Source: Acidobacteriota bacterium
GTDB lineage: Bacteria; Acidobacteriota; Terriglobia; Acidiferrales; UBA7541
Assembly: GCA_013289835.1 (NCBI GenBank)
Contig: JABCZG010000005.1
Location: 1 to 64,000, forward strand
Length of the DNA: 64,000 nucleotides
Reading direction: 5' to 3'
Positions 1,036 to 39,393 of the stretch are shown piece by piece. Position numbers and translations under genes: made by a program. Within the stretch, counting starts at the first letter, position 1; each line of letters starts with the position of its first letter. The notes below the pieces were generated by a model that was not told the DNA's origin, did not search any database, and saw only the letters and a list, made by a program, of their open reading frames with translations.

Positions 1036-1090
1036 TGGTTGCGGGGGTCAGATTTGAACTGACGACCTTCGGGTTATGAGCTCGACGAGC
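1036..1090 (-). repeat. Distal attachment site: 3' 55 nt of tRNA-fMet, outer left end of island
   Basis: Matches 39317-39371 of the intact tRNA-fMet with one mismatch (position 1082), including the CCA end. Confidence 0.9.
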
Positions 1091-13447: not shown

Positions 13448-13493
13448 TGGTTGCGGGGGGCAGATTTGAACTGACGACCTTCGGGTTATGAGC
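13448..13493 (-). repeat. Internal attachment site: tRNA-fMet 3' end fragment
   Basis: 46-nt match to 39317-39362 with one mismatch. Shares downstream TAAGTCTTGATGATTCAATTGCCCTT with the copy at 1036. Confidence 0.88.
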
Positions 13494-17915: not shown

Positions 17916-18470
17916 TTATGGATTGAGTCCAGTAAATCGTAGATGCTCTGTCGCCACAAGTTTGCTTTCCAGAGAAGCCAAGACTGCCGCCACATCCCTA
18001 ATTCCGATCGCTCTTAAGGTATGGTCAAGGTCTCCTGCCGTACGCAAGGTGAAGAATTGCTTCTTCGGAGCACTGAAAAGCAATACCTTTTTGTTGTAAT
18101 CAAGGAGATTTATTACGTTTGTGAGAGTTCCCTTGCTGATTCCGTCCCAGAGCATGAATCCGCAACTAGCATCTTTCGCCATGGCACAATCTTTGATTCC
18201 GTAATAATGGCGATCTCGCTTGACGGCCGGATCAGCGGAATGCGAGTGGATAGGCCAATTGCCCACATTGTTGCGACAGACCTCCATGCAATAAACAACT
18301 ACGTGTCCGTACCCGCGTTCCGCGAGGTAGCGTTGCACAGCCTTATCAGCGCCGTTTGCATCGCCGACTAACACGGTGAACTCTTTTCTCAGGATGTTGT
18401 CGAGGCGCTCTTTCACCTGCGCATTCAGCTTCGACAATGCACGTGAGCCAGCCACAAAGACGGAATGCAT
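17916..18470 (-). CDS. SLOG/DUF2493-like putative nucleotide-ligand-binding protein
   Basis: VFVAGSRALSKL...VLVGDANGADKAVQRYLAERGYGHVVVY... Confidence 0.65.
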   Translation of the reverse strand: MHSVFVAGSRALSKLNAQVKERLDNILRKEFTVLVGDANGADKAVQRYLAERGYGHVVVYCMEVCRNNVGNWPIHSHSADPAVKRDRHYYGIKDCAMAKDASCGFMLWDGISKGTLTNVINLLDYNKKVLLFSAPKKQFFTLRTAGDLDHTLRAIGIRDVAAVLASLESKLVATEHLRFTGLNP

Positions 18471-18473
18471 TTT

Positions 18474-19115
18474 TCAGCTCCTCGTACGAGTGAGTGCAAG
18501 GGCAAAAACTGACTTGACCAACCCTTGGCGTTTCAAAGTCCGAGCTGCGACGTTCATAGTTGCGCCGGATTGAAAAAGATCGTCCAGTAACAGTACGGAT
18601 CTCCCTTCGAGATCTCGGTCACTCACGAAGGCAGCTTCCAAAGCGGCGACTCGCGCAGAAAAATCACCAACGTCCTTCATTTGTGGTGTCGACTTTGATT
18701 TCTTAAGGGACGTCGCATTAAAGGTGATTCCAAGAGCCTTGGCCAACTCGGTGCCAACCTCAATAACCGGTTGGAAAGGACGTTGCAACTTTGATGGTGG
18801 CATCGGAACGACCACATCAGGTTTGATCTCTGAAGTCTTCATGAAGACTGTAATCGCCTCTGCAATGGAAGGTATCGCGCCTTTGTCTCCTCTATATTTC
18901 AAGCGGTACACGAGTTCGCCCAAGGGTGATCGAACAGTGTCGAATTCGGGATGTCCGAATTCGTTGTACCCAATCATGGTACTTGAAATCGTGTGTAGGT
19001 CGAGCACATATCCTTGGTCCCAAGACCCTTTAATTTCTTTCGGGTGAATCTCAATCACGGTACCTCCAACTTGAAATGACGTGGCCCGAACGAGAATACA
19101 GCTGTCCATCAGCAT
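18474..19115 (-). CDS. Phosphoribosyltransferase (ComF-like)
   Basis: LVYRLKYRGDKGAIPSIAEAI...VVVPMPPSKLQRPFQPVIEVGTELAKAL...VLLLDDLFQSGATMNVAARTL (PRPP-binding loop). Confidence 0.8.
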   Translation of the reverse strand: MLMDSCILVRATSFQVGGTVIEIHPKEIKGSWDQGYVLDLHTISSTMIGYNEFGHPEFDTVRSPLGELVYRLKYRGDKGAIPSIAEAITVFMKTSEIKPDVVVPMPPSKLQRPFQPVIEVGTELAKALGITFNATSLKKSKSTPQMKDVGDFSARVAALEAAFVSDRDLEGRSVLLLDDLFQSGATMNVAARTLKRQGLVKSVFALALTRTRS

Positions 19116-19301: not shown

Positions 19302-20243
19302 CTAACGGAACACGCTATTGTGGAAAGCCAAATATTCATGCGATGGCAAGCTGTTACTCCCGCGCGGCAGGCGTATGGCTCTTCCGTGGAGATGATAGTA
19401 GTCACGTCCGTTCTCAAACTCTTCTCGAATGCGACTACTGACGACCACTTTCAGTTGATCCGCGTCAACGGTCACGTATCCCTGATCGAACAACGTGTGC
19501 AGGTCGCTTCGCAAAAGCAGACCATTCTCGAGTTCATGCGGACCACCAGAGCCGTAAGGCTTGATGTGCGCAGCCTCTAACACCGGCAGTGTACGCTCGC
19601 CCGTGATCGCACATCTACGTTCATAAGCGTCGGTGACAATCACTCTGAATGTGCCTTGGCCGAGTCTCGGTCGAACGACCATGGGTTCTCCGTAGCGGAT
19701 ACTCTGGACCGCTGCGGTAGTCGCTGGGCCGGGGTCAAGGTTCGCAGTAGCCCGTGTCGCCAATCTTTCGGTGACCGCTCCCCAGAGTGCCTTGCCCGTA
19801 GTTCCGTCTTCGCTGTCGTATCCTTTTCCTTGGACAATATTAAGGCTGAAATTCGAGGGTACCGGAATCCATTCTGCTTCCTTAAAAAAGAATGGTTCCG
19901 CCAAGAGTATGCAACCGATCTTTGGGTTCTCTATCGGTTCGATGGGCACACGTCTGTACTTCGCGATCCTTTCGCGCATTTCCGAAAGAGATCGAACTCC
20001 GTTGCCTTCACCGAAAGCTTCCCATGAGAGCGAGATCGGCAAATGGACAAAGCGGGTGAAGAACCCGCCACCGACTATAAAATTGCGCGGCGAATGAAGT
20101 TTAAATAACAGCATTTCACCGGCGTTGAGAGCTTTGAATGACGCCTCAGGAGATGGGCGCCAGAAATTTACTTCAACCACAGAAGACTTGGACGCATGCA
20201 ATTGGAACCAATCGTAATCCGTGACCGCGACAAAGAAATTCAT
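19302..20243 (-). CDS. HNH endonuclease with N-terminal PUA/EVE-like domain
   Basis: N-terminal MNFFVAVTDYDWFQLHA...ELLFKLHSPRNFIVGGGFFT; C-terminal YERRCAITGERTLPVLEAAHIKPYGSGGPHELENGLLLRSDLHTLFDQGYVTV. Confidence 0.85.
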   Translation of the reverse strand: MNFFVAVTDYDWFQLHASKSSVVEVNFWRPSPEASFKALNAGEMLLFKLHSPRNFIVGGGFFTRFVHLPISLSWEAFGEGNGVRSLSEMRERIAKYRRVPIEPIENPKIGCILLAEPFFFKEAEWIPVPSNFSLNIVQGKGYDSEDGTTGKALWGAVTERLATRATANLDPGPATTAAVQSIRYGEPMVVRPRLGQGTFRVIVTDAYERRCAITGERTLPVLEAAHIKPYGSGGPHELENGLLLRSDLHTLFDQGYVTVDADQLKVVVSSRIREEFENGRDYYHLHGRAIRLPRGSNSLPSHEYLAFHNSVFR

Positions 20244-21220
20244 CGAGCGACTCTCAGCAAAATGGCGTTGCGGTGAAACTCAAGAAATTGTCGCTGGCCA
20301 TTAGTAAAGGGACCGACGTTGGTGATCCCCTTCGTTTCGAGGCCCATCCTTTGCAAGGAAGGCCTATGGGCGACCGGCGAGATGATGAGATTTCCGGAAT
20401 CCTCAAACCCAATAAATCCGCGGTCGAACAAATGGTCAATACTAGGCGTCAGGAGTAAGCCGTTTTCGCCGTCGAGTCGCTCTTCATTTGAAGAATCTCG
20501 CCAGGGCTTACAATGGCTGGCCAGAAGGTAATTCGGATTATCGACACCCGTTATTCGGCAGTGAGTTTCAATTCGCATGACGCGCTGCTTGAAAAGGCCT
20601 TGGCCACGCCGTGCTCGGACAATTGCCTCTCGGTCTGTTTCATTCACCGATGGATCAGTCTCAATTTGCTGTTCGATCCTGCTTTCCCAGACATCCAGTT
20701 CGTCGCCTGTCACGATCCTATCGCTTTCAATAGCGGCGCAAGCCTCCGCTGCGGCGATGAGTAAGCGGGCCTCTTCTCCAATCAAACCGCAGAGGACTTC
20801 CGCGAAGTCTTCGGAGAGTTCTGTCAAGTAGATTGACTGGATTCCGTTTCCGTTGGCCTGAAGAGGTGAATAGCGATCCGGTAAAACTTCCCTCAATACT
20901 GCCATATGATCTTTGGGACGGATCTTGTTCAGGAGCCGAGAAAACGATACGTTCACTCTCCATCCGACATTTTCCCAGTTCTGCCCCACAGAACCAAACT
21001 CAATTGGTTTCGGACACTCCCAACAATAGGACTTGGAGATTCCAATAGCGGCAACCCGAGTATCTACGAAGGAAAATATTAGGTCTCCAGGTGAGACTTC
21101 TCGCATCGACTCGTAGAACGGATTGCGCGCGCCATTGGCGTTGCGCTTAGGAGACCAGAGGTACCCACCCGCAATCTCTTGGCGGAATGTTTGATTCTGG
21201 TTGACCCACCAATATCGCAT
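20240..21220 (-). CDS. HNH endonuclease with N-terminal EVE-like domain
   Basis: N-terminal YWWVNQNQTFRQEIAGGYLWSPKRNANGARNPFYESMREVSPGDLIFSFVDTRVAAIG; C-terminal ETHCRITGVDNPNYLLASHCKPWRDSSNEERLDGENGLLLTPSIDHLFDRGFIGF. 4-bp overlap with next gene. Confidence 0.85.
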   Translation of the reverse strand: MRYWWVNQNQTFRQEIAGGYLWSPKRNANGARNPFYESMREVSPGDLIFSFVDTRVAAIGISKSYCWECPKPIEFGSVGQNWENVGWRVNVSFSRLLNKIRPKDHMAVLREVLPDRYSPLQANGNGIQSIYLTELSEDFAEVLCGLIGEEARLLIAAAEACAAIESDRIVTGDELDVWESRIEQQIETDPSVNETDREAIVRARRGQGLFKQRVMRIETHCRITGVDNPNYLLASHCKPWRDSSNEERLDGENGLLLTPSIDHLFDRGFIGFEDSGNLIISPVAHRPSLQRMGLETKGITNVGPFTNGQRQFLEFHRNAILLRVAR

Positions 21221-22185: not shown

Positions 22186-23178
22186 GTGGTCACAACTGAA
22201 GCGGCTCTGACCCTCGCTCTGGCCCAGGAGAAAGAACAGGTGGCCGTTCAATCTTTATGGAAGCATTTTCAATCGTTTTTTGGTCGTTTGAATCCTGGAT
22301 CTTCCTTCGAGCTGACGGCATCAAGTCAGCACAACACAATTCGGGGATTGATCGAAAATCGAAATGGACCTGCGGCCGAGTTGTGGCCGACTACATTTCT
22401 GCAAGGATCGTACCGACAACAGACGGCGATCTATACGATCAGTGACGTCGATATCGTTGCCCTCTGCAATTTGAGTTTTCCCGGAGCACCAGGCGGGGGC
22501 GGCAGGTCGTATGGCCGCGATGAGATTTTCCGAATTATCGCGGCACCGTTGTTTGCCGATGGCCGGTATCGCGACAAGGTAATCTACAGACCCCAAAGTA
22601 TGTGTATCAAAGTTGATCTAGGGATCAAAATCGAGATTTTACCGGTTGTATTCAAGGCCGGTACGACAGACATAGATGTTGAACCGTTCGTCTTGTATCG
22701 ACCCGAAAGCGCAAAATGGGAAGACGGCTTTGCGCGATATCATCAGAGATGGCTTTCGTACAAAAACTCTGCGGAGAGAACGAACGGAAACTTCATTCCG
22801 GCAATTAAAGTACTGAAGCACATTCGCACGATGTTCGGCCTTAACGCAGCGTCATTTCATATCGAATGCCTTCTCTACTTCCTCGCGGATACTGTATTTC
22901 AAGGTGGCCCAGCAGACTACATCGCTTCATTTCTCCGAACTATAGCCATGTACACGCCAGACGCATGGTATAAGGCGAACGTCATGACTCCGTGCGGCGA
23001 TCGCGATATTTTCACGTGTACCGAATGGGGTGCTCAGGATTGGTGGAAGTTTCACGCCATTGTCTCGAAATGCTCAAACCTCGCACAGGCCGCAATAAGC
23101 ACCCAGAGCGAAAGTCAAGCAATTGAGGTATGGCAGACAATCTTGGGCAAGGACTTCTTTCCTGCGAGGGTAGAATGA
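22186..23178 (+). CDS. CD-NTase (cGAS/DncV-like nucleotidyltransferase), CBASS
   Basis: FLQGSYRQQTAIYTISDVDIVALC (GS...DxD) and conserved KVDLGIKIEILPVVF region; adjacent patatin effector. Confidence 0.85.
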   Translation: MVTTEAALTLALAQEKEQVAVQSLWKHFQSFFGRLNPGSSFELTASSQHNTIRGLIENRNGPAAELWPTTFLQGSYRQQTAIYTISDVDIVALCNLSFPGAPGGGGRSYGRDEIFRIIAAPLFADGRYRDKVIYRPQSMCIKVDLGIKIEILPVVFKAGTTDIDVEPFVLYRPESAKWEDGFARYHQRWLSYKNSAERTNGNFIPAIKVLKHIRTMFGLNAASFHIECLLYFLADTVFQGGPADYIASFLRTIAMYTPDAWYKANVMTPCGDRDIFTCTEWGAQDWWKFHAIVSKCSNLAQAAISTQSESQAIEVWQTILGKDFFPARVE

Positions 23179-24113
23179 GGCGCATTCTTGTCATCGACGG
23201 AGGAGGAATCAAAGGAGTGGTACCGGCGTCGCTCTTGGCGCATGTCGAGGAGTCGCTCCCACACAAAATCTCGGATTACTTTGATCTCATCGCTGGAACT
23301 TCGACGGGCGGTATCATCGCCTTGGGACTTGGACTTGGCTTGTCAGCGCGGGAAACGCTCGCATTCTACGAAGCACACGGCCCAGCAATCTTCCACGGCA
23401 ACGCGAAGTTCCGAGCTTTTCGCGCATGGTTTCGCGCGAAATACGATCCAAGACCGCTCCGATTGGCTCTTCAAACGGTCTTTGGCGAGCGTTCTCTCGG
23501 CGAGAGCACAAAACGATTGGTGATTCCTTCATTCAACGTGGACACCGGAGAAGTTCATGTCTGGAAAACTGCCCACGATCCGAAGCTTGAGCGAGACTAT
23601 CGGAGTCTCGTCGTCGATGTTGCAATGTCCACGGCAGCCGCGCCGACATACTTTCCAACCCATCAGCTCGATTGCGGGACACCTCTAATTGATGGAGGGA
23701 TGTGGGCAAATAATCCGATCGCAGTTGCGGTGGTCGAAGCAATAGGGATTTTGAAATGGGCGGCCGCCGATTTGAGGGTTCTTAGCTTGGGATGCACGAC
23801 CAAGGCTTTGAACATAGATTGGGGACGACGACATTCACTGGGAAAGTTCGGCTGGGCCGAAAAGGTTGCTGAGGTGTTTCTTGCCGGACAATCGTCGGGG
23901 GCCACGGGCATGGCTCAGCATTTAGTACCAGACCGCGGCAATGTTGTGCGAATTTCACCTTTGGTAGGCGATCGGTACGAGCTCGATAGCTGCACAGACA
24001 TTCCTTCGTTGAAAGGACTTGGGGCATCCGAAGCGCGAAAGGCCCTCCCGCAGCTTAAGCCGATGTTTTTTACGGAACCGGTAAGTGAGATATTCAAGCC
24101 ATTCCACACTTGA
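23175..24113 (+). CDS. Patatin-like phospholipase, CapV-like CBASS effector
   Basis: ILVIDGGGIKGVVPASLL, LIAGTSTGGIIAL (GxSxG), LIDGGMWANNPI (DGG). ATGA overlap with CD-NTase. Confidence 0.9.
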   Translation: MRRILVIDGGGIKGVVPASLLAHVEESLPHKISDYFDLIAGTSTGGIIALGLGLGLSARETLAFYEAHGPAIFHGNAKFRAFRAWFRAKYDPRPLRLALQTVFGERSLGESTKRLVIPSFNVDTGEVHVWKTAHDPKLERDYRSLVVDVAMSTAAAPTYFPTHQLDCGTPLIDGGMWANNPIAVAVVEAIGILKWAAADLRVLSLGCTTKALNIDWGRRHSLGKFGWAEKVAEVFLAGQSSGATGMAQHLVPDRGNVVRISPLVGDRYELDSCTDIPSLKGLGASEARKALPQLKPMFFTEPVSEIFKPFHT

Positions 24114-24141
24114 GCTTGCGCGCTAGCATTCCAATTTCGAG

Positions 24142-25926
24142 GTGGTATCGCACCGAGCAACTGAGGAATCGACGACTATTTCTCGTGCCAGTATCGGGGG
24201 AGAAGTTTTGAAACCCACGCCGACAAGAACACTGAACCCCCTGCCTTTCGGGGACTTGGAACCTCATCGTTTTGAGGATTTGGTCCGACAGCTAGCTTAC
24301 GACCTTCGCCGATGGAAATCTTTGGAAGCGACGGGCCGCGGTGGTTCCGATAGCGGCATGGACATTCGTGGCGTTGAGCTTGTCCCACTGGATGGAGAGG
24401 AGTGGGGCGACGACCAAGAGTTGGAAGAAGGCTTTCTGGAACGGCTCTGGATTTTTCAGTGCAAGCGCGAAAAGTCGCTGGCGCCGAAACGCATACGGAA
24501 GATTGTCGCGGATAGCCTGCCGTCGGCGCAAACCCCTCCGCATGGTTTTATTCTCGCAGCGGCATGCGACATTTCGAAGGAAGGGCGAGATGCCTTTCGC
24601 GAAGAGATGGTCGCGCGAAGCGTCGAAGAGTTTGCCGTCTGGGCCAAGAGTGAGCTCGAAGACTTACTTTTTCAACCCAAGAACGACCGCTTGCTTTTTG
24701 CTTACTTCGGCATCGCCCTGCAACCAAAACGGAGAAACCTGTCCACGGTGCTCCGGGCAGAGATCACGAAGAAGAAGCAGCTAACCGCATTAATCGCCGA
24801 TGAGGAACAACGAGACGGCAAACTGGTCTTGTTGCGCGACCCGAGTGACGATCGGTACCCGTATGAACCAAAGGGCGGCGAGCCTCCGGCGCGTTGGTTG
24901 CTGTGCCGCGCGTTAACGATGCGGAAGCCGGGCCACCTGATTGTTCTGCAGCGTGAGCACTTGGCGGCAATAAGCGAAGATGGCAAAAACTGGGACGCTA
25001 TCTTGGACTTCGACACGATGTTGTACAGGGCTGAGAACGATCTTCGAAACGCACACGCTTGGAACCTAACTGAATACGATCACAACGACCGATCGCCATA
25101 TGACTTTTGGAACGAATACATCGCCGAGTCTCGGAGAGCGTATCTCAAGATAAGCCGTGCTGTTCCGCTTGATCGGATATTGGTTCTTGATCCGCTCGGC
25201 GATGGCTTTTTCCCGATTCCCCACATACTCGTTGATTTTGCCGAGAAGACCGGGCCTTTCACCGCTGAGAAATACCCGAGGTTAGAATCGATCAGCAACG
25301 TGGCTCGGCCTATTGATATCAACGTAACGGATGAAAACCGAGGCGCGATTTTTCCGAATCCGTTGCCAGATGGAAATGGGCCGGAGCCCGCAGGTTTTGA
25401 CGACACGGGAAAGGCATCGCCGCTGACAGGCCAGAGCGATGCAAGGTTGCAGGTACTGTTAGCGAAGGCAGCTCCTCGGGAAGAAACGTCAGTTGCCGAT
25501 GCAAACACGAATGCGAAAGAGGATAAGGAGAGCCGGAACGCGCTTGATGAGTTTCGAGATTGGCGTGAGAAGGTGGGAGTTCCCGTCTTCTCGGCTTTCG
25601 TCCACAAGCTTCGAAGTGCCGGTCATCGTGCCCGGGTTGTTGTTCGGTCGGCTTCACCCGATCCCGAAGTTGGTTTTCGACAAGGGTTTGAAAGCGTAGA
25701 GATGCGAGTTCGATTTCGTGGGGGGCACTATTTTCGTGGCGGCAGTGTCTCTGTCACGGTTCATGGCCATAGGCCCGTGTGGCGAACGGAGATTTCACCG
25801 GCAGAACGGGATTCGCGCGGGAACTCTCGGCCCTCTAATAGCGACACGAATGTGGAAAAGAGCACAACGAAGGAACAGCTTGAAACGCTAATTTTAAATA
25901 TGTTGGCGCGGATGCAGGCTGAGTAA
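24142..25926 (+). CDS. PD-(D/E)XK (Mrr-like) nuclease-domain protein, third gene of CBASS-like operon
   Basis: LEPHRFEDLVRQLAYDLRRWKSLEATGRGGSDSGMDIRGVE...LWIFQCKREKSLAPKRIRKIV (D...QxK arrangement). Gap of 28 bp after the patatin gene. Confidence 0.65.
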   Translation: MVSHRATEESTTISRASIGGEVLKPTPTRTLNPLPFGDLEPHRFEDLVRQLAYDLRRWKSLEATGRGGSDSGMDIRGVELVPLDGEEWGDDQELEEGFLERLWIFQCKREKSLAPKRIRKIVADSLPSAQTPPHGFILAAACDISKEGRDAFREEMVARSVEEFAVWAKSELEDLLFQPKNDRLLFAYFGIALQPKRRNLSTVLRAEITKKKQLTALIADEEQRDGKLVLLRDPSDDRYPYEPKGGEPPARWLLCRALTMRKPGHLIVLQREHLAAISEDGKNWDAILDFDTMLYRAENDLRNAHAWNLTEYDHNDRSPYDFWNEYIAESRRAYLKISRAVPLDRILVLDPLGDGFFPIPHILVDFAEKTGPFTAEKYPRLESISNVARPIDINVTDENRGAIFPNPLPDGNGPEPAGFDDTGKASPLTGQSDARLQVLLAKAAPREETSVADANTNAKEDKESRNALDEFRDWREKVGVPVFSAFVHKLRSAGHRARVVVRSASPDPEVGFRQGFESVEMRVRFRGGHYFRGGSVSVTVHGHRPVWRTEISPAERDSRGNSRPSNSDTNVEKSTTKEQLETLILNMLARMQAE

Positions 25927-25956: not shown

Positions 25957-26484
25957 TCAAGACCGCCGAAAGTGTCCCCTTGCATGCTGACGACCCTCAA
26001 GCGCCTTGCCTAAGAGACAGAGTCTTCGGCAAACGTGCAAAATATCCCAGGGCTCACTACCAGGGATTTGATCGGATATTTCTTCGGCTGATTGGTCACG
26101 GTCGGATAGAACTTCTAGCACTCGCTGCAAGAGATCGTCCTCGTCTTCTTCGACCTCGTCTGCCCATGACTCACCGTACCGCGCCCCAATCATATGAATG
26201 TTGTCACGCCATATGATGAAGTGGCTCTCGCAATCAGTGTCGCGCCACACTGACGGGTAAACACTCGTTCCCTTAGGCGATTCATATAAGCGCCATGCGG
26301 GGCCGGCGCGCCGGTCGAGATTCACGGGCACTTCAGAACCGCACCCGCAAGGACAAGACAAGACTAACCAGCGCGGCCCTTGCCGATCCACAATGACCGC
26401 ATCTCCAGGCCGTTTTAAATACGCGCTGGCATTTGCGCGTGAGTTTACTCTAGCTCTGATTGTAAGGGTTCTGTCTGTCATCAT
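25957..26484 (-). CDS. DUF6527-like protein
   Basis: CPCGCGSEVPVNLDRRAGPAWRLYESPKGTSVYPSVWRDTDCESHFIIWRDNI. Confidence 0.7.
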   Translation of the reverse strand: MMTDRTLTIRARVNSRANASAYLKRPGDAVIVDRQGPRWLVLSCPCGCGSEVPVNLDRRAGPAWRLYESPKGTSVYPSVWRDTDCESHFIIWRDNIHMIGARYGESWADEVEEDEDDLLQRVLEVLSDRDQSAEEISDQIPGSEPWDILHVCRRLCLLGKALEGRQHARGHFRRS

Positions 26485-26523
26485 TTCGTTACCTTAAACC
26501 AAGAAGTCGCTTCACCTGAAGCC

Positions 26524-28221
26524 CTAGGGTTTTCCAGCTATTTCACGCAGAATTTTTTGGGCAAAGAAAAACGCGATTGCGCGTGATTTGGTAGGCGCAT
26601 CCGCCTGAAGGTTCCCATGAATGTTGCATCCTTTGCGAATAAGACAAAGTGCGAGCGTGAGGGCGTATTGCCCAGGCTCGTTTTCCGTCACCAAGCTCAA
26701 GGTTCGAATTTGGTTGACCGCGTCGTAGTACCATTCTGCGGGCTCTCCTCGCCGACAGTGCGTCGTCTGGCTACCTTTGAGTGCCGATTGCTCATAAAGC
26801 GGTTGGATCAATTTAACAAGCTCGTCTACCGTAAATCTGTCCTTCTCGAAATCCTCTATGAAGCCTTCGACCAAGAGCCCTCCTTCCAAAGACGCCGGGT
26901 CGTAGGTCAGAGGATAATGCTGTTCTAACTTCTCAAAATCTATGAGGATGGCATCGCCGTGGCGGACGAGAACGTTCGTCGCATGCATATCGCCATGCGC
27001 CGGCGCAACTAGCGGCGCGGTGTCTCCATGTTTCTCAAACAGCTCCTTAAATTGCGCAATATCAGTAGTTCCTCCAAGATTTCGAACAATTTCTGCTCGT
27101 TTGTCAGGCAATGCGATCAGGGTGTCCGAAGCTTCGGTGCGCCATTTTTCCTCTAAATAATCACCGAGCGATCGACTCGTGTTAGGAAACCTCTGTTTGC
27201 GCCATCCGCCAAGCGTCTTGTCAAATAAATTAGAAATTGCGTGACCGCAGCGCGCTCCCCGTGCGCAAGTTATCAGGGACTCAGTACCTTCGACGAAATC
27301 GCCCACAAGAATTCCTTGCGTGGACCCGAGATTGCAGCGGTCCAGCCGTAGGCGCGGCCGGAGATAAAAAGGCACGTACTCGGATATGTGCGAGATATAT
27401 TTGTCGTACTCGTCCGTGATTTTCTTGCGAGGGCCGATTTTTACAAAGTAGAGGTGCGGGTAACCACCCGTCTCACCCTGTGGCACCAATGCAGCTTCTA
27501 ACGACCCGTACGCTTTAAAGACTGGCGCACCAGACATCCCGCTAGGAAGCGCTATCAGCCGGAGCTCCGAGCAATTCCAAAATGCTCTTTGGAGCAACAT
27601 AACTCGTTCCGGATGTCCCTCGGGATCAAATTTGTCGCGAAGAAATTCTTCATCAAACTTCAAATTAGATTTCGGAGGCGGACCGGCGGGTCGATCGCAC
27701 ACCAAAGCTGCAATTTCCGGCCATGACCACGCCGATTCGCAAATATAAACGCACGGCATTGAGAAGCTGTTTTCTCTCTCTTGACGGTTCTCAGGTATCG
27801 CTCGCCATTCTTCCGGTAGAAGATTTGCCACGGGAATCGCGCCGTCTATTAGTGTGTTCACGACGAGGGCACGGGCTGTTGCGAGGCGAATATAGACACG
27901 GACGTCATGGTTCAGCAGGTTAGCGGCAATAATTCGTAGCTCTTGAGGCAAACTGTTGAGCTTTTTTGGATCCTGGGTCCAAATCACTGCGTCCAATTGC
28001 TTAGGATATTCGGCGCCGCGAAGCTGTTCCAGCGTGCATCGCTCGTATTGAAAGTTTCGCTTTTTGAACCAATCCAAACACTCTTGCGGATAGTCGCCGT
28101 CAAATGCAATTTTGAAGCTCCGGTCTGTAAACCGGTCCAAGTATTCCGCTTGTGGCAAGTCACCGATGAAAGCGATTTTCGAACGCGTTGTCCCGTCCGG
28201 CGAAAATTCACGAATGGCCAT
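26524..28221 (-). CDS. APH/choline-kinase-fold phosphotransferase-like protein with long N-terminal region
   Basis: PAHGDMHATNVLVRHGDAILIDFEKL (Brenner motif HGDxHxxN and DFE); N-lobe-like SGAPVFKA...LYFVKIG. Confidence 0.7.
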   Translation of the reverse strand: MAIREFSPDGTTRSKIAFIGDLPQAEYLDRFTDRSFKIAFDGDYPQECLDWFKKRNFQYERCTLEQLRGAEYPKQLDAVIWTQDPKKLNSLPQELRIIAANLLNHDVRVYIRLATARALVVNTLIDGAIPVANLLPEEWRAIPENRQERENSFSMPCVYICESAWSWPEIAALVCDRPAGPPPKSNLKFDEEFLRDKFDPEGHPERVMLLQRAFWNCSELRLIALPSGMSGAPVFKAYGSLEAALVPQGETGGYPHLYFVKIGPRKKITDEYDKYISHISEYVPFYLRPRLRLDRCNLGSTQGILVGDFVEGTESLITCARGARCGHAISNLFDKTLGGWRKQRFPNTSRSLGDYLEEKWRTEASDTLIALPDKRAEIVRNLGGTTDIAQFKELFEKHGDTAPLVAPAHGDMHATNVLVRHGDAILIDFEKLEQHYPLTYDPASLEGGLLVEGFIEDFEKDRFTVDELVKLIQPLYEQSALKGSQTTHCRRGEPAEWYYDAVNQIRTLSLVTENEPGQYALTLALCLIRKGCNIHGNLQADAPTKSRAIAFFFAQKILREIAGKP

Positions 28222-29557
28222 CTGAATCGTCCCGCGTGAAGAGAGGTTGTGCATCTCCCCGCGCGAGGACGCCCCGTGAAGAGCAAATATAGCAATTGGG
28301 ATTTCGAGTGAATGCTACGGCTCGCAAAGATGGAGTCCGCGCGTTGTAAAGGATGTGTCGACCGTCGCTCGGTACACCCACTGTCATAGCCAGAAACATC
28401 GTCATCGCGATCGAGGTTACCGTTCCATTGATCGACACGACGGCCGGCGCAGGTTCATTCGCGCCTTGAATGTAGACATCCCGTTGGCGTTCTTCGGAAT
28501 TCATCATATCTCGCCGGACCTCTTCAGAGTCCAGCAGTTCACAGCAGGTGAAGCATGGCAGCCCAGGCGCGAGCGCCTGAATGCGGCCGTGTATGCCGGT
28601 TATGTGGCCCTCGCTCGCCGAGATGACTGATCCCACGTCGATGCACGGAATGAGGTACTGATAAGCAATCTGTTGAATAACGGCACGGCTTCCATGGGAA
28701 TCCGTACAAGAGAAGATGAAATCTGCATGCCGCAATTCGCGGGCGAATCGCGTTCTTGTGACATCGCCCACGATCCGCTGTGAGACCTGGTCGGGTAAGA
28801 TCTGCGCAATCATATCCGCAGCTACATCCGTCTTAAAGCGGCCGACATCGCTCGTATGGGCCCCGACCACCCGGTTCAGATTAGTCAAGTCGATGCGATC
28901 AGGATCGATGAGAATGAATTTGCGTACACCCAAATAGGCGAGCTGTTCAGCAGCTATCGAACCGGTGCCGCCGAGACCGACTATGGTCACAGTCAACGAT
29001 TCAAGATGCTTCTGTCCCGCCGCACCTAATGCACGAATCTGGCGGTCGAATCTCGGGGAAGCAGAAGGATGAGAATTTGTCGGGTCGAACAAAACCTGTA
29101 GCTGCGCTCCTACCGAAGTGATGCGTAGCGGCGTCTTTGTCCCGAGACACCGTGCCCGCCATCCACCAGCGCTGACCACCACGGCGACAGGCTTTGTATT
29201 TGGAGCGCGTACGGACATGAACTTCGCCAGATGAATTTCGCCTTGGTCATCTATTCGGGAGAACTCCGGCGGTGCGGACCCAGGATGCGAGTGTACGAAA
29301 ACGACGGAAAGGTTTTCGCGGGCGGCGACTTTACCGATATGAGCAACATAGTCCGGCTTGAGTTGCGCACTCAGTGGGCCGCGGTCTGAATAGCAATCAT
29401 CATCAGGATATTCTATGCGGGTGACAACGAACCGCTCCAGGTCGGCGGACAGAGCTACGTGGGACGCAAGCATGATGGCGCACCGCTCGGTTTCGCGTCC
29501 TACGAGTTCGCCTACAATTCGGCTAACGTCACTATCTTGAAGCCTAAGCTCGATCAT
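28208..29557 (-). CDS. JAB/JAMM peptidase fused to ThiF/E1-like ubiquitin-activating domain
   Basis: JAMM-like VFVHSHPGSAPPEFSRIDD; E1 nucleotide-binding VTIVGLGGTGSIAAEQLAYLGVRKFILIDPDRIDLTNLNR; CFTCC and CYICS zinc-binding-like cysteines. Confidence 0.9.
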   Translation of the reverse strand: MIELRLQDSDVSRIVGELVGRETERCAIMLASHVALSADLERFVVTRIEYPDDDCYSDRGPLSAQLKPDYVAHIGKVAARENLSVVFVHSHPGSAPPEFSRIDDQGEIHLAKFMSVRAPNTKPVAVVVSAGGWRARCLGTKTPLRITSVGAQLQVLFDPTNSHPSASPRFDRQIRALGAAGQKHLESLTVTIVGLGGTGSIAAEQLAYLGVRKFILIDPDRIDLTNLNRVVGAHTSDVGRFKTDVAADMIAQILPDQVSQRIVGDVTRTRFARELRHADFIFSCTDSHGSRAVIQQIAYQYLIPCIDVGSVISASEGHITGIHGRIQALAPGLPCFTCCELLDSEEVRRDMMNSEERQRDVYIQGANEPAPAVVSINGTVTSIAMTMFLAMTVGVPSDGRHILYNARTPSLRAVAFTRNPNCYICSSRGVLARGDAQPLFTRDDSDGHS

Positions 29558-29952
29558 CGTGGTGGATTCAATCGTTGAACGATTGCCCGGTAGTAATGTT
29601 CAAGGCGGCTTCGGTTCGGATCCCACATCTGAAGATGCCAAGAAAACCATGTCATAGGACGTCCCGGAGGGACATCGTAGGGCAGCGGCGTCCCTTCGTT
29701 CGCGCTCTGGGGAATCGCGCCATTGGAAAGGCGTACCGGAGGGGAAACCCAGAAGCAATCCGGCTTCGCGGCAGGATACCCGGGCGGCGCGATAAAAAGG
29801 ATGTCAACTTTTCGAGGGTTCCAGCCCGCCGGCAGGTCGAGACCCTTAATTGTGACGAGATACGAGCCATCTGCACGGCGCTGAATCTCAGCGCTCTGAT
29901 TCTTGAACTCCTTCAGATAACCCTGAAGTTCCAAAAATTGCTCGCTAATCAT
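29554..29952 (-). CDS. Prokaryotic E2-like (Prok-E2_E-type) protein
   Basis: DILFIAPPGYPAAKPDCFWVSPPVRL...TWFSWHLQMWDPNRSRLEHYYRAIVQRL; ATGA overlap with E1. Confidence 0.8.
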   Translation of the reverse strand: MISEQFLELQGYLKEFKNQSAEIQRRADGSYLVTIKGLDLPAGWNPRKVDILFIAPPGYPAAKPDCFWVSPPVRLSNGAIPQSANEGTPLPYDVPPGRPMTWFSWHLQMWDPNRSRLEHYYRAIVQRLNPPR

Positions 29953-30193
29953 AGAAACCAAACGTCGCTGGAGGGACAGCAAAGAAATGCTTCACACGCT
30001 CGGTAATATCCACCGCTTCACCGTCACTAATTCCCTTGTCCGGCCTATCGCCCTCCTCTTCGAGGAAGAGCTGGTAGTTTGGCGCGACGGTGGCTATGGC
30101 CTTTATCTCGGCCCCGGTGAGTGCGGTCTTGGCGCTTTCGTAACGCTTGGCGTCTACAAAGAACGGGTGGAGTGATTTGGCTTCTTCAGGCAT
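29945..30193 (-). CDS. Single-domain ubiquitin-like protein (multiubiquitin family type)
   Basis: TGAEIKAIATVAPNYQLFLEEEGDRPDKGISDGEAVDITERVKHFFAVPPATFG-FYD; overlaps the E2 start. Confidence 0.75.
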   Translation of the reverse strand: MPEEAKSLHPFFVDAKRYESAKTALTGAEIKAIATVAPNYQLFLEEEGDRPDKGISDGEAVDITERVKHFFAVPPATFGFYD

Positions 30194-30217
30194 GCGATGC
30201 TCCTTTTGTTGTGGTCT

Positions 30218-31096
30218 TCATTCGTCGTGTTTCAGGTCTTCAAATTGACTGCGGTTGGTCCACACGATTGGCTCAGCTTTCTGGGCTCCGTCAATCCGTA
30301 GGTGCCGAACAAAATAAGAAACCAAGGCGCGGCGGATTGTCTTGGAAAGCTTTCCATCCACCATGCCAAAATCATTGATAACAGAATCCCTCTGGCTGGT
30401 CGTCAGATTCGGGTTGGGTTCAATTTCGACCACGAAAAAAGTCTGCCATTCCACGTCATCGTGCGGATTGACGGTGCTTGAACGTCGTCCATGAATCTGT
30501 TGGAATCGCGTTAGAACGAAATCACGAAATCGAGAAGATTCGTAAGACCATGCGCGCGCATGCCAACGCGTACCGTCGAAGGCTAGCGAATGTGGAGCAA
30601 TCCATTGACGTGTCGGTTCGGGGCTACGCATCGATTGGTACGTTGCGTCGATCTCTGTGTCGTCACGAATCGCCCATAGAATCGGCAATAGCGCTTCCTT
30701 GCGGACGCGTCGGACCGGCAAAGTTACGACGTCGCATGGTGGACGAACTCCCATGAAACTGAACGACGGCGAAATTGTTCCGGCAGCCAATCCTGAAAGT
30801 TCGTTGAGATAGGTCTGGGTGTCGGGCGCGACAAATAGGGGTGTGAATTGTTTTGTCGCACGATAGACCTTTTCGCGGCGGTCATATTCCATGTTGTCCT
30901 TGGCCAGCACCATATACCTCGAAAAATCCAGTGATGCCTGTTGAATCGAGACGTTGAAATATTCGGCCACTTCGCCGCGGTTGATTTTTCCATCCCACAG
31001 CAATCGAAATTCGATGAATTCCAGTCGCCGATCTTGGCCCCATGGCCGGGGCCGCTGGTTTTGGGCTTCTTCTACGGTGTCATTCTTGAGGAGCAT
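30218..31096 (-). CDS. WYL-domain transcriptional regulator, CapW/BrxR-like
   Basis: DRRLEFIEFRLLWDGKINRGEVAEYFNVSIQQASLDFSRYM (wHTH) and WYL-type core YQSMRSPEPTRQWIAPHSLAFDGTRWHARAWSYESSRFRDFVLTRF. Heads the Ubl operon. Confidence 0.85.
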   Translation of the reverse strand: MLLKNDTVEEAQNQRPRPWGQDRRLEFIEFRLLWDGKINRGEVAEYFNVSIQQASLDFSRYMVLAKDNMEYDRREKVYRATKQFTPLFVAPDTQTYLNELSGLAAGTISPSFSFMGVRPPCDVVTLPVRRVRKEALLPILWAIRDDTEIDATYQSMRSPEPTRQWIAPHSLAFDGTRWHARAWSYESSRFRDFVLTRFQQIHGRRSSTVNPHDDVEWQTFFVVEIEPNPNLTTSQRDSVINDFGMVDGKLSKTIRRALVSYFVRHLRIDGAQKAEPIVWTNRSQFEDLKHDE

Positions 31097-31103
31097 GCCA
31101 ATT

Positions 31104-31158
31104 TGACCTATGCGTCGTGTATTACGACTAATCGTATAATACGACGCATCCTAGGTCA
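31104..31158 (-). promoter_or_regulatory. 55-bp palindromic operator/promoter upstream of the CapW-like gene
   Basis: TGACCTATGCGTCGTGTATTACGACTAATCGTATAATACGACGCATCCTAGGTCA: near-perfect inverted repeat. Minus-strand TTGACC-N17-TACGAT is promoter-like and lies within it. Confidence 0.8.
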
Positions 31159-31298
31159 AGGCAAAAAACGGGTTAAGAGGCTCCTGTCCTCTCTGTCCTC
31201 TCTGGGTGACCGAAAACGCTGGGAGACCTGGCTTGATACGGATTTGGCTGCTCGTGCAAGCTCTCCGAACAGATTTCGACCGGGGGGCCGGGAGGTCG

Positions 31299-35732: not shown

Positions 35733-35978
35733 ATGGATTCTGAACAGCCAGTCATCCTGAAGCGGAAAGTCCGGCTCGAACAAGACACGAGCGAACTGGT
35801 CGAAGACTATGCCCGGTACATCGGAATCAGTGCGGAGGATGTGCTGAATATCGTGCTGAAAAAGATGATCGCCAATGACATGGAATTCCAGTCCTGGTTG
35901 AGTCAGCAGAACGTCCGGCAACAGGGCCAATCTCCTCTCGGGCTGCCTGCGAGTGTGGTGGAAACGGAGGCGGCATGA
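35733..35978 (+). CDS. Small protein, possibly ribbon-helix-helix-like
   Basis: KRKVRLEQDTSELVEDYARYIGISAEDVLNIVLKKMI; ATGA overlap with the coupling protein gene. Confidence 0.5.
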   Translation: MDSEQPVILKRKVRLEQDTSELVEDYARYIGISAEDVLNIVLKKMIANDMEFQSWLSQQNVRQQGQSPLGLPASVVETEAA

Positions 35979-37978
35979 TGCATCGATTTCTCAATTCTAG
36001 AGGCATGGTCGCATGCCTATTGGCAATGGCGACAGGAATGACTTTGTATTTCCGTATGCCATTCCCCGAAGACAACGTCCTCTTCGAACTTATGTATCTC
36101 AGGGCAAACCCCGTCTTCTGGGGATTCAAGTACACCTACATCCTTCTTCTATATACGACGCCCTTCATCGGGTATTCCATTGTGCTCTCGGGCTTGTACG
36201 TTTTTGCATCGAAAATTCGCCGCCCGGACAAGCCCGGGCGACTACCGCGTTACCCCGACCCGCGTAAGCGCAACGACCTCTATATAGTGCTCGGAGAGGT
36301 CCACAATCCACGTAGGCCAACACCCTCTCGAGATCCCCAGTGGTTGATGATTCCCGCGCGCGGACTCTTCACGGGCATTGCGATCCTCGGCGCGGTTGGC
36401 AGCGGCAAGACGAGTTGCTGCATGTATCCCTTTGCGGAACAGCTGATTGCCTATCAGGCCCATGACCGCGGGAAGCGGATCGGCGGCCTGGTCCTGGAAG
36501 TGAAGGGAGACTTCTGCCACAAAGTGCGGGACATATTGCAGCGCTACAGGAGGGAAGGCGACTACGTCGAAGTCAGCCTCGATTCTGAGTACCGCTACAA
36601 CCCCCTGCACAATGACCTCGACGCGCATGCCCTGGCCTACAACATCGCATCCTTATTGAATAACCTCTTCGGCAAAGGCAAGGAACCCTTCTGGCAACAG
36701 GCCTACACGAACCTTGTGAAGTTCATCATCCTGCTCCACAAGGTGGCCTTCGATTACGTGACCCTCTTCGATGTTTATCACTGTGCGATTTCGCCTGAGC
36801 TTTTGCAGCAGCGAATCGAGCAGGCGGAAGAGCTGCTTTTTGATCAGCATTTCGTCCTCATTCCCAAAACCACTTACGAAGAGCATATCCAGGTGCTCAT
36901 CGATTTCGATTTCCTTCCGGATGAAGCCAAAGATACGGACCAGTACCGGGCCCCAGCTACGCCGGTGCTGGAACGGCACCTGAAGAAGCACGCGGTTGAG
37001 TTCCAGAAGAAGACCGTCCCGGCACCTGAGAAATCTGACCCGGACAAGCGTGCCCAACTAGAGGCCGTCAAGCGTTGGTTTCATGACGACTGGCAACGGA
37101 TCGAACCGAAGCTCAGGACTTCGATTGTCGAGGGGATTTCCGTGTTCCTTTCGCTCTTCGACGACAACCCAAAAGTGAAGCGGGTTTTCTGCCCGCCGAA
37201 GGAGTGCTACGACAAGGAGGCCAACGCAGATGGCAAATACGGCAAGCCTCTGCCTTCGTTCTCCTGGCTCATCGAAACCGGCAAAGTGTGCGCGTTGAAT
37301 TTCCCCATCGGCATGAACCCGGGCTTGGCCAAGGCGATTGGCGTGATGATGAAGCTCGACTTCGAGCGAGCGGTGTTGAACCGCGTGCCCCAGATCGAGG
37401 CTCACCCGGAGCAGTATTTCCGCCAAGTGTTCTTCATCTGTGACGAGTACCAGCATTTCGCAACTGTGGGGGAGAACGAGCCGACCGGGGATGAAAAGTT
37501 CTTCAGCCTGTCGCGTCAGGGGAAGTGCATTCCGATCATCGCTACGCAGAGCATCAGCTCGCTGAAATCTTCCTTGCCCGGTGAGACCTGGCGCACGCTT
37601 TTGCAGACCTTCCGCACGAAGATTTTTCTGGCCCTTTCGGATGACTTTTCCGCGAAGATTGCGAGCGAGCTTTGCGGCAGGGAAGACCAGCTCAAGGTTG
37701 GCTACAACCTGTCCGAAACTGGCCACGATACCAATGTCAGTTTCCTGACCGGCAGAGCTCAATCCAACAAGGCCAACCTCACTACATCGAAGACCTACTA
37801 CCAGCAGAGCGATTATCGTTTCGATATGAAGACCTTCACGGAGCTGCGCAACGCACAATCGGTGACGATTGCCTACGACGGCCTCAATCCGATGCCGCCA
37901 ATGTTCTGTTATCTCAAGCCCTATTTCAACGACCCAAACAAGTCTTATTTCCGGCAGGCAGCAGACGGGGAGTTGTGA
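35975..37978 (+). CDS. VirD4/TraG-like type IV coupling protein (conjugative transfer ATPase)
   Basis: GIAILGAVGSGKTSCCMYPFAEQL (Walker A), FICDEYQHFAT (Walker B-like), two N-terminal TM segments. Confidence 0.85.
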   Translation: MMHRFLNSRGMVACLLAMATGMTLYFRMPFPEDNVLFELMYLRANPVFWGFKYTYILLLYTTPFIGYSIVLSGLYVFASKIRRPDKPGRLPRYPDPRKRNDLYIVLGEVHNPRRPTPSRDPQWLMIPARGLFTGIAILGAVGSGKTSCCMYPFAEQLIAYQAHDRGKRIGGLVLEVKGDFCHKVRDILQRYRREGDYVEVSLDSEYRYNPLHNDLDAHALAYNIASLLNNLFGKGKEPFWQQAYTNLVKFIILLHKVAFDYVTLFDVYHCAISPELLQQRIEQAEELLFDQHFVLIPKTTYEEHIQVLIDFDFLPDEAKDTDQYRAPATPVLERHLKKHAVEFQKKTVPAPEKSDPDKRAQLEAVKRWFHDDWQRIEPKLRTSIVEGISVFLSLFDDNPKVKRVFCPPKECYDKEANADGKYGKPLPSFSWLIETGKVCALNFPIGMNPGLAKAIGVMMKLDFERAVLNRVPQIEAHPEQYFRQVFFICDEYQHFATVGENEPTGDEKFFSLSRQGKCIPIIATQSISSLKSSLPGETWRTLLQTFRTKIFLALSDDFSAKIASELCGREDQLKVGYNLSETGHDTNVSFLTGRAQSNKANLTTSKTYYQQSDYRFDMKTFTELRNAQSVTIAYDGLNPMPPMFCYLKPYFNDPNKSYFRQAADGEL

Positions 37979-38125
37979 ACACGGAGAGCAATGGCGAGTG
38001 CCCCGAACGGATAGAAGCAATTGCTTTTGCACAGGCCGGCGGATTTGATGCGTGACCCTATGCACCTGGACTCTGATAAACTTTCGCCCCATAGGGCGAT
38101 TGAGTCATCGAGAGAAAGAGACTCG

Positions 38126-39313
38126 ATGGCGAGACGCAGGTATCAGAAGGGACAGTTGTGGCTTGAAGGAAAGACCTGGTATGGCCGATGGCGTGAAGAC
38201 GTTCTCGTGGGCGGGGTTCGGAAGCGTATCCGACACCAAGAGGCGATTGGTTCGCTTAAGGACTATCCAACGAAACGGCTTGCTCAGCGTGCGTTGGATG
38301 ACCGAATCGCTCACGTCAACAAAGTCAGCTATAAGCCAAGGCCAACGGCCAAGTTCGCAGACTTCGCTCGGAATTGGGAGCAAAAAGTGTTGAGCCAGTA
38401 CGGGGATTCGACGGCAATCAATTATCGGACTCACATTCGGAAGCACCTTGTTCCGTTCTTTGGTGAGTACCCGATGAAGGACCTCAATCCAGAGATGGTT
38501 CAGCAGTTTGTTTCCAGTTCTGCGGTGGGCGCGAAAACTACCCGAAACATTTGCATCACACTCCAGAGCATGTGGACCACGGCCAAAGCGTGGGGCTATG
38601 TTGCTCACAACCTCATGGAAGGCGTCGTACTCCCGGACGTAAAGCGAGTACAGCGATTCTTCTTCGCTCAACGGGAAATCCAACTCATTCTTGCCAAGGC
38701 TAAAGAGCCGTACCGCACCTGGTACGGACTTGCGGCGGAAACCGGCCTGCGAGCTGGCGAACTGTGCGGACTGACAATCGATGACATAGACCTAGAACGT
38801 GGAATGCTTCAAGTGCGGCAAAGCGCATGGCGGGGAAAACTAGGCGATCCGAAAACAACTGAGTCCATTCGGGTGGTCGAGCTTTCACCTCAAGCCTCGA
38901 GGCACCTGAGGACGTTCTTGGAATCTTGGCATCCGAACGAACGTCGGTTGCTCTTCGCCACCCGCAACGGAACACCGTGGGATCAGAACTTGTTGCTCAG
39001 GCGAAAGTTCAGGCCTCTGCTTCGGGCGCTTGGTATCCAGGTGCCACGCGGCAATGGCTTCCATGCGTTCCGTCATGCGAACGCAACTCTGATGAACAGT
39101 TTCGGAGCATCGCAGAAATTGCGTCAGCAGAGACTGGGACACGCTGATGGGTCGCCAGTTACGGACACGATTTACACGCACGTGATCAGCGAGGACGGAA
39201 AGCGAATTGCGGCGCAACTTGGCGATGCAGTTTGGGGAATTTTGGACGCTAGTTGGACGGAAAAGGAAAACGGCTCGAGAGTGGAGTCTCCCAAGCCGTT
39301 TGTTATCAACTAA
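38126..39313 (+). CDS. Tyrosine recombinase/integrase of the island
   Basis: TGLRAGELCGLTIDDID, FHAFRHANATLM, LGHADGSPVTDTIYTHV. Ends 3 bp before the tRNA-fMet CCA end. Confidence 0.95.
   Translation: MARRRYQKGQLWLEGKTWYGRWREDVLVGGVRKRIRHQEAIGSLKDYPTKRLAQRALDDRIAHVNKVSYKPRPTAKFADFARNWEQKVLSQYGDSTAINYRTHIRKHLVPFFGEYPMKDLNPEMVQQFVSSSAVGAKTTRNICITLQSMWTTAKAWGYVAHNLMEGVVLPDVKRVQRFFFAQREIQLILAKAKEPYRTWYGLAAETGLRAGELCGLTIDDIDLERGMLQVRQSAWRGKLGDPKTTESIRVVELSPQASRHLRTFLESWHPNERRLLFATRNGTPWDQNLLLRRKFRPLLRALGIQVPRGNGFHAFRHANATLMNSFGASQKLRQQRLGHADGSPVTDTIYTHVISEDGKRIAAQLGDAVWGILDASWTEKENGSRVESPKPFVIN
39268..39301 (-). terminator. Terminator-like hairpin inside integrase 3' end, downstream of tRNA-fMet
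   Basis: AAACGGCT...GAGA-GTGGAG-TCTC...AGCCGTTT; minus strand continues TTTTCCTTTTCC. Confidence 0.55.
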
Positions 39314-39316
39314 AAA

Positions 39317-39393
<77 letters not shown>

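What the first reader, a model, noticed from the sequence alone, without database searches (positions are those of the whole stretch)
25957..31096. Ubiquitin-like conjugation operon with kinase-fold protein, DUF6527 and a CapW-like repressor
In transcription order: CapW-like WYL, Ubl, E2, JAB-E1 fusion, APH-like phosphotransferase, DUF6527-like. Short overlaps run Ubl/E2/E1/kinase. Bacterial Ubl pathways (Bil, Bub, type II CBASS Cap2/Cap3) are established or emerging immune systems. The APH-like member with intact HGDMHATN and DFE, and repression by a CapW-type regulator, are not part of the well-known sets as far as I can recall. Kinase-fold control of conjugation would be new.
Basis: partly seen in the sequence, partly recalled or inferred. 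Interest (0 to 1): 0.8.

Follow-up and report, generated by a model that had tools for sequence, protein, structure and literature searches.

The report
Bub ubiquitin-like operon with dedicated kinase
A mobile island in this bacterium carries a ubiquitin-like protein-tagging operon of the recently named Bub type, switched by a DNA-damage-sensing repressor and carrying an extra kinase gene found only in one branch of these operons; in several close relatives the kinase has been swapped while the rest of the operon stayed put.

Summary
In detail: minus-strand operon 31096-25957 encodes CapW, a single-domain Ubl, E2, JAB-E1 fusion, APH-fold kinase and DUF6527. Most of it is known. The core is the Bub pathway (closest solved structures are Citrobacter BubCD and BubB), the repressor is a true CapW, and Bub operons under CapW or CapH+CapP control are already reported (219 of 544). 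What I could not find described is the kinase. It occurs in 36 of 49 fetched relatives of this E1, marks one clade of the Bub E1 tree (one gain, two losses), and every intact copy examined sits in a Bub operon. Its catalytic residues are almost invariant, and its model matches aminoglycoside phosphotransferases; its N-terminal domain is unassigned. In some Bradyrhizobium groups, operons about 90% identical carry clearly divergent kinases, with synonymous divergence several-fold above the flanking genes: allele replacement, suggesting an outward-facing module. I favour a target-facing or effector phosphotransferase within a CapW-induced Bub response. Kinase control of conjugation remains possible but unshown. 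The element is a tRNA-Met-integrated defence island. Caveat: the main Bub papers were not readable here, so a mention of this kinase there is not excluded.

The parts
31103..31164 (-). Promoter with overlapping CapW operator: palindrome 31110-31127/31132-31149 (15 of 18 complementary) plus TTGACCTA/TAGGTCAA outer arms; -35/-10 TTGACC-17-TACGAT (31159-31131)
   Evidence: similarly placed palindrome upstream of capW in L040, L043, L044, similar but weaker sequence in L041, L042; CapW is known to bind ~20-bp palindromes over the -10 (PMC9122588)
30218..31096 (-). capW, WYL-domain repressor, first gene of the operon
   Evidence: phmmer 6.2e-66 to S. maltophilia CapW 7tb6; PF13280
29945..30193 (-). 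Ubl (BubA type), single beta-grasp domain, ends PPATFG-FYD: the FG is invariant in the 51 Ubls of kinase-bearing operons, with a short tail after it
   Evidence: PF14452 2.5e-9
29554..29982 (-). E2 (BubB type); TTG 29982 is the ORF caller's start, ATG 29952 the likely one
   Evidence: PF14462 4.6e-13; Citrobacter BubB 1.4e-4 single sequence, 2.3e-8 profile
28208..29557 (-). JAB-E1 fusion (BubCD type): HSHPGSAPPEFSRID JAMM motif, VGLGGTGS nucleotide loop, CxxC..CxxC metal-site-like cysteines
   Evidence: Citrobacter BubCD 1.7e-33; PF14464, PF00899; alignment A3
26524..28221 (-). APH-fold kinase with N-terminal Rossmann-like domain (residues ~15-180): catalytic K261, E271, H409-G-D411-x-H413, N416, D428
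   Evidence: conservation; model pLDDT 85, pTM 0.85; APH(3')-Ia, Foldseek 5e-8; TCAD9/APH
25957..26484 (-). DUF6527 protein: C44, C48, S78, C85, H88 invariant; C-terminal winged-helix-like domain
   Evidence: PF20137 7e-17; 60 of 60 for the five residues; model pLDDT 85, winged-helix matches

Best explanation
A complete, CapW-repressed Bub (bacterial ubiquitination-like) operon of a subclass that carries its own active APH-fold kinase, in a mobile defence island. Proposed sequence: (1) CapW sits on a palindrome over the -10 and is released by single-stranded DNA from phage or DNA damage (known for CapW; inferred here). (2) The JAB part of the JAB-E1 protein trims the Ubl tail after ...PATFG; its ThiF part adenylates the glycine; the E2 passes it to a target (inferred from homology to Bub). 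(3) DUF6527 is a second, probably Ser-His, protease that trims or removes Ubl (from memory of the Bub literature; residues conserved here). (4) The kinase is a dedicated, catalytically competent phosphotransferase made together with E1. Because it is exchanged between otherwise near-identical operons, I think it faces outward: it recognises or phosphorylates a phage-imposed or host target (specificity or effector module), rather than being a fixed regulator of E1, E2 or Ubl. Shown: gene content, homology, kinase clade, intact active site, operator-like palindrome, swaps. Inferred: every biochemical step and the immune role.
For: Core identity. CapW and operator. Kinase conserved: in 36 of 49 E1 relatives in genome contigs, in 6 of 7 plasmid loci inspected plus one decayed remnant, across alpha-, beta- and gammaproteobacteria, Acidobacteriota, Verrucomicrobiota, FCPU426 and Deinococcus. 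One clade of the E1 tree, 3 changes against 18.6 for shuffled labels. No orphan copies: all 26 matches in 24 genomes, and the further hits in the phylum and in the Bradyrhizobium order, lie in Bub operons. Active site: H409, D411, N416, D428, E271 40/40, K261 39/40; fold. Exchange: L041/L044 kinase 71% identical with dS 1.92, against 93-97% and dS 0.28-0.64 for the other Bub genes; sharp edges at both ends of the kinase gene; kinase dS also raised in L151/L122 (1.09 vs 0.40-0.75), L061/L064 (0.30 vs 0.08-0.13) and L152/L153 (1.75 vs 0.69-1.08); dN/dS 0.11-0.16 in the first group, so function is kept. Island.
Against: The swap is not universal: kinase and neighbours diverge alike in L117/L149/L150, L056/L057, L005/L059 and L077/L079, and DUF6527 is partly raised in some pairs. 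Over the whole clade kinase distances track E1 distances best of all gene pairs (Spearman 0.59), which also fits a partner of E1. In six loci the kinase lies behind a second single-domain Ubl, hinting at a Ubl partner. No phage test exists for Bub: PMC13373217 says Bub has not been shown to protect against phage.
Confidence: 0.5

Rival explanations
1. The kinase controls conjugation directly: it phosphorylates the Ubl, E1 or E2 (PINK1-like in logic) to license or stop tagging.
For: Gene overlaps E1 (the kinase frame opens before the E1 stop in most loci); six loci pair the kinase with a second single-domain Ubl; kinase-E1 distances correlate best (0.59); most kinase-bearing operons have a single-domain Ubl, most kinase-less relatives a longer one.
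Against: The only highly conserved Ser/Thr on the Ubl (position 26) is equally conserved without the kinase; two kinase losses leave otherwise intact operons, so conjugation does not need it in general; the kinase is swapped while Ubl, E1 and E2 are not; the Ubl-length association rests on only 2-3 independent contrasts.
Confidence: 0.25
2. The kinase is a small-molecule (or tRNA or nucleotide) phosphotransferase that acts as the toxic or protective effector, and is itself the protein switched by Ubl attachment.
For: Closest folds are small-molecule kinases: APH(3')-Ia, methylthioribose kinase, maltokinase; APH-like domains occur as effectors in other conflict systems (PMC7159879, PMC8195603); TCAD9 family link.
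Against: The same fold list includes LxmK of a lanthipeptide dehydratase complex, so fold does not decide the substrate; no experimental data.
Confidence: 0.2
3. The whole pathway is a general DNA-damage stress response rather than phage defence; the kinase acts on a host target. (Overlaps with the other readings of the kinase.)
For: CapW responds to ssDNA; the authors of PMC13373217 state that Bub may be a stress response rather than immunity.
Against: The operon lies in a defence island with CBASS-like, ShosT/PsyrT-like and HNH genes; sparse, mobile distribution (3 of 249 and 2 of 396 genomes); kinase exchange fits an arms race.
Confidence: 0.25
4. The kinase is an unrelated passenger, for example an antibiotic-resistance gene caught in the operon.
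For: APH homology.
Against: Conserved position and order across phyla, single clade, no orphan copies found, extra N-terminal domain absent from Pfam.
Confidence: 0.02

Closest known systems
Bub (bacterial ubiquitination-like) operons, e.g. Citrobacter BubB/BubCD and Synechocystis PCC 6803 pSYSX
   Same: Ubl, Prok-E2_E, JAB-E1 fusion, DUF6527 in that order; CapW or CapH+CapP-type regulators upstream
   Different: An APH-fold kinase gene between JAB-E1 and DUF6527; single-domain Ubl; E1 keeps MoeB/ThiF-like CxxC cysteines, of which the first pair is absent in the aligned part of Citrobacter BubCD
CapW/BrxR regulators
   Same: Sequence (6e-66 to S. maltophilia CapW) and palindrome over the -10
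   Different: Here and in L040-L045 and L047 capW is the first gene in the same direction as the operon; in CBASS it is reported on the opposite strand, as in L057, L077, L079, L084
TCAD9 / aminoglycoside phosphotransferase-like kinases (PF19974, PF01636)
   Same: Catalytic core HGDxHxxN...IDF; fold
   Different: TCAD9 match covers only ~100 residues of the catalytic core; ~200-residue N-terminal domain without Pfam family; Bub context instead of MoxR-vWA ternary systems
Bil and type II CBASS Cap2/Cap3
   Same: Bacterial E1/E2/JAB logic
   Different: JAB fused to E1, E2 a separate gene of the Prok-E2_E family, own Ubl; BilD model scores only 5e-4 and Cap2-type models match only the adenylation domain

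Membership tests
Bub pathway | Multi_ubiq-type Ubl with C-terminal glycine that can be freed | tested here: met
   PF14452...PPATFG-FYD, FG invariant in kinase-bearing operons
Bub pathway | E2 of the BubB/Prok-E2_E family | tested here: met
   PF14462; Citrobacter BubB 2.3e-8 by profile
Bub pathway | JAB-E1 fusion (BubCD) with intact JAMM and nucleotide loop | tested here: met
   Citrobacter BubCD 1.7e-33; HSHP..S..D and GLGGTG
Bub pathway | DUF6527 gene with conserved Ser and His | tested here: met
   PF20137; S78 and H88 60/60. That it is the Ser-His protease of Bub is recalled, not read
Bub pathway | Oxyester instead of cysteine thioester chemistry (recalled from the Bub literature) | tested here: inconclusive
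   E2 Cys80 is Met in Citrobacter BubB and in 5 of 18 kinase-less relatives, so it is probably not the nucleophile; chemistry itself not testable
Bub pathway | Ubl conjugation to proteins | not testable with these tools
   needs biochemistry
CapW repressor | WYL protein matching solved CapW and palindrome overlapping the -10 | tested here: met
APH-fold kinase, catalytically competent | K, E, HGDxHxxN and D of the active site; APH fold | tested here: met
   activity itself not tested
Bil (BilABCD) | Separate JAB, E1 of BilD type | tested here: not met
   JAB fused to E1; BilD model 5e-4 only; nearest structure is BubCD
Type II CBASS | Cyclase, Cap2 E1-E2 fusion and Cap3 in one operon | tested here: not met
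   E2 separate; the nearby cyclase/phospholipase genes are convergent, and no relative of that cyclase was found in the flanks fetched around related Bub operons
Ubiquitin-kinase (PINK1-like) module | Phospho-acceptor on Ubl specific to kinase-bearing operons | tested here: inconclusive
   no kinase-specific acceptor seen; Thr/Asn77 differs by lineage; other substrates not testable

The most novel reading that the evidence does not exclude
A phosphorylation-dependent bacterial ubiquitin-like immune pathway in which an exchangeable APH-fold kinase chooses or marks the target (E3-like or phospho-licensing role), so that swapping the kinase changes what the conserved conjugation machinery attacks.
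Probability: 0.2. Interest if true: 0.87.

Novelty: new variant of a known kind. Interest (0 to 1): 0.6.

Why it matters
Bub pathways are newly described, and their targets and biological role are open. A dedicated kinase confined to one clade, with an intact active site and signs of allele exchange, gives a concrete handle: it is a testable candidate for the part that decides what gets tagged or what kills. If it phosphorylates the Ubl, the target or an effector, it would tie phosphorylation and ubiquitin-like tagging together in bacteria.

Tried and rejected
Viral contigs: no relative of the JAB-E1 found; phages: no kinase match. A type II CBASS reading (cyclase and patatin next door) was rejected: convergent, not found with related operons. 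Passenger or resistance gene: rejected by conserved position. Search for a kinase-specific phospho-acceptor on the Ubl: none. Pfam on the kinase N-terminal domain alone: nothing. DUF6527 model against PDB: only the C-terminal winged helix matches well. Single-domain Ubl as a strict correlate of the kinase: suggestive by counts, but only 2-3 independent contrasts, not significant. Main Bub papers (Ye 2026, Gong 2025, Chambers 2024) are not held; open-text searches for a Bub kinase of this kind found none. CapK of PMC13373217 is a GHKL-type kinase, not this one. The E1 set was seeded from kinase-bearing operons, so 36 of 49 overstates the frequency in Bub as a whole; in this phylum only 2 of 396 sampled genomes have the kinase.

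Full report
OBSERVATION. The ORF caller's start for the kinase (28254) is probably too early: homologues begin at the equivalent of 28221 (MAIREF). The genes overlap from Ubl through kinase, so they are very likely one transcript from the promoter-like site at 31131-31159.

CORE IDENTITY. The JAB-E1 protein is closest, among solved structures, to Citrobacter BubCD (1.7e-33), and the E2 to Citrobacter BubB (1.4e-4 alone, 2.3e-8 by profile). The Ubl is a Multi_ubiq domain ending PPATFG-FYD. The FG is invariant in the 51 Ubls of kinase-bearing operons and is followed by no or a few residues, as expected for a JAB-trimmed Ubl. DUF6527 keeps C44, C48, S78, C85 and H88 in all 60 relatives compared. 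From memory, the Bub literature describes a Ser-His protease and oxyester chemistry; I could not read those papers. The E2 cysteine (C80) is not conserved outside the clade, which agrees with a non-cysteine mechanism.

REGULATOR. The WYL protein is a real CapW. A palindrome at 31110-31149 overlaps the -10. A similarly placed palindrome is found upstream of capW in L040, L043 and L044, and similar but weaker sequence in L041 and L042. CapW is known to bind such sites (PMC9122588) and to let go on single-stranded DNA (PMC13373217).

KINASE: DISTRIBUTION. Plasmid relatives from Bradyrhizobium, Rhizobium, Mesorhizobium and Deinococcus have the same order Ubl-E2-JAB/E1-kinase-DUF6527, with varying regulators; one further locus is a decayed remnant. 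Of 49 E1 relatives from genome contigs, 36 have the kinase in the operon; this set was seeded from kinase-bearing operons. In an E1 tree of 66 rows the kinase needs 3 changes (shuffled labels 18.6), consistent with one gain at the base of a 56-row branch (95% SH-aLRT) and two losses. Bub operons without it are common elsewhere: same-phylum loci and Synechocystis pSYSX. Every intact kinase found in 24 whole genomes, in the phylum sample and in a sample of the Bradyrhizobium order lies in a Bub operon. The window's nearest relatives are Bradyrhizobium (E1 76% identical), while the host genome is of another phylum group in the searches: horizontal transfer (inference).

KINASE: ANATOMY. Catalytic residues are invariant or nearly so in 40 sequences. 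The AlphaFold2 model (pLDDT 85, pTM 0.85) has an alpha/beta N-terminal domain and a C-terminal kinase that Foldseek matches to APH(3')-Ia (5e-8), methylthioribose kinase, maltokinase and the LxmK kinase of a lanthipeptide dehydratase complex. Fold alone does not tell protein from small-molecule substrate. The N-terminal domain matches no Pfam family.

KINASE: EXCHANGE. Among Bradyrhizobium-type operons that are roughly 80-95% identical in DNA from capW to DUF6527, L040, L041/L042 and L044 carry three distinct kinase alleles: identity falls to 57-87% exactly over the kinase gene, lowest in the N-terminal domain, and recovers in DUF6527. Kinase dS is 1.2-1.9 against 0.2-0.9 for the other Bub genes, with dN/dS 0.11-0.16: replacement by related alleles plus purifying selection. 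Smaller excesses appear in L151/L122, L061/L064 and L152/L153, with DUF6527 also partly raised in the last; other groups show none. I read this as recurrent but not universal exchange, the pattern expected of a specificity or effector module.

A SECOND UBL. In six loci (L074, L075, L081, L083, L085, L121), and in the overlapping or related regions L152-L155, the order is Ubl-E2-E1-DUF6527-second single-domain Ubl-kinase. This links kinase and Ubl and keeps the control-of-conjugation model alive.

SETTING. A 24-nt direct repeat of the tRNA-Met 3' end lies at 1038, 13450 (one mismatch) and 39319, none expected by chance and nowhere else in the genome. With the integrase (38021-39313) and a coupling-protein gene (35975-37978) this marks tandem or composite integrative elements. 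The Bub-bearing unit also has a CBASS-like operon, a ShosT/PsyrT-like gene, two HNH endonucleases and a dCTP deaminase-like gene: a defence island.

VERDICT. Ordinary Bub core with known-type regulation, plus a kinase that defines a subclass I could not find described. Substrate and role are unknown; target-facing or effector function is my first choice, control of conjugation second.

Noticed in passing
window 1038-1061, 13450-13473, 39319-39342: Direct repeats of the tRNA-Met 3' end: two nested or tandem integrative elements, with integrase 38021-39313 next to the tRNA.
   Followed up: partly
window 22186-25926 (+): CBASS-like operon convergent with Bub: CD-NTase-like cyclase, CapV-type phospholipase (NCBIfam CBASS_lipase 9e-77), and a 594-aa protein with weak Mrr / PDC-M58A similarity and an unexplained C-terminal half.
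   Followed up: partly
window 17916-19115 (-): Phosphoribosyltransferase-like protein matching PsyrT/ShosT (1e-16 / 5e-8) next to a small protein that looks DprA/SLOG-like by eye (no Pfam hit): possible ShosTA/PsyrTA-type pair.
   Followed up: no
window 19302-21220 (-): Two adjacent HNH_2 endonuclease genes resembling restriction enzymes.
   Followed up: no
window 13795-16093 (+): dCTP deaminase-like gene (PF22769/PF22569) overlapping a gene with a PDC-M11B match.
   Followed up: no
L074, L075, L081, L083, L085, L121: Bub operons with two Ubl genes; the second, short Ubl sits directly before the kinase.
   Followed up: partly
L042 and L117 (same contig G398:C79, about 15 kb apart, opposite strands): Two different kinase-bearing Bub operons in one Bradyrhizobium cajani genome.
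   Followed up: no
L043 9859-11115: Two DUF6527 genes in tandem after the kinase.
   Followed up: no
L148 (G905): Close relative with E1 and kinase both split over several open frames: a decaying operon.
   Followed up: no
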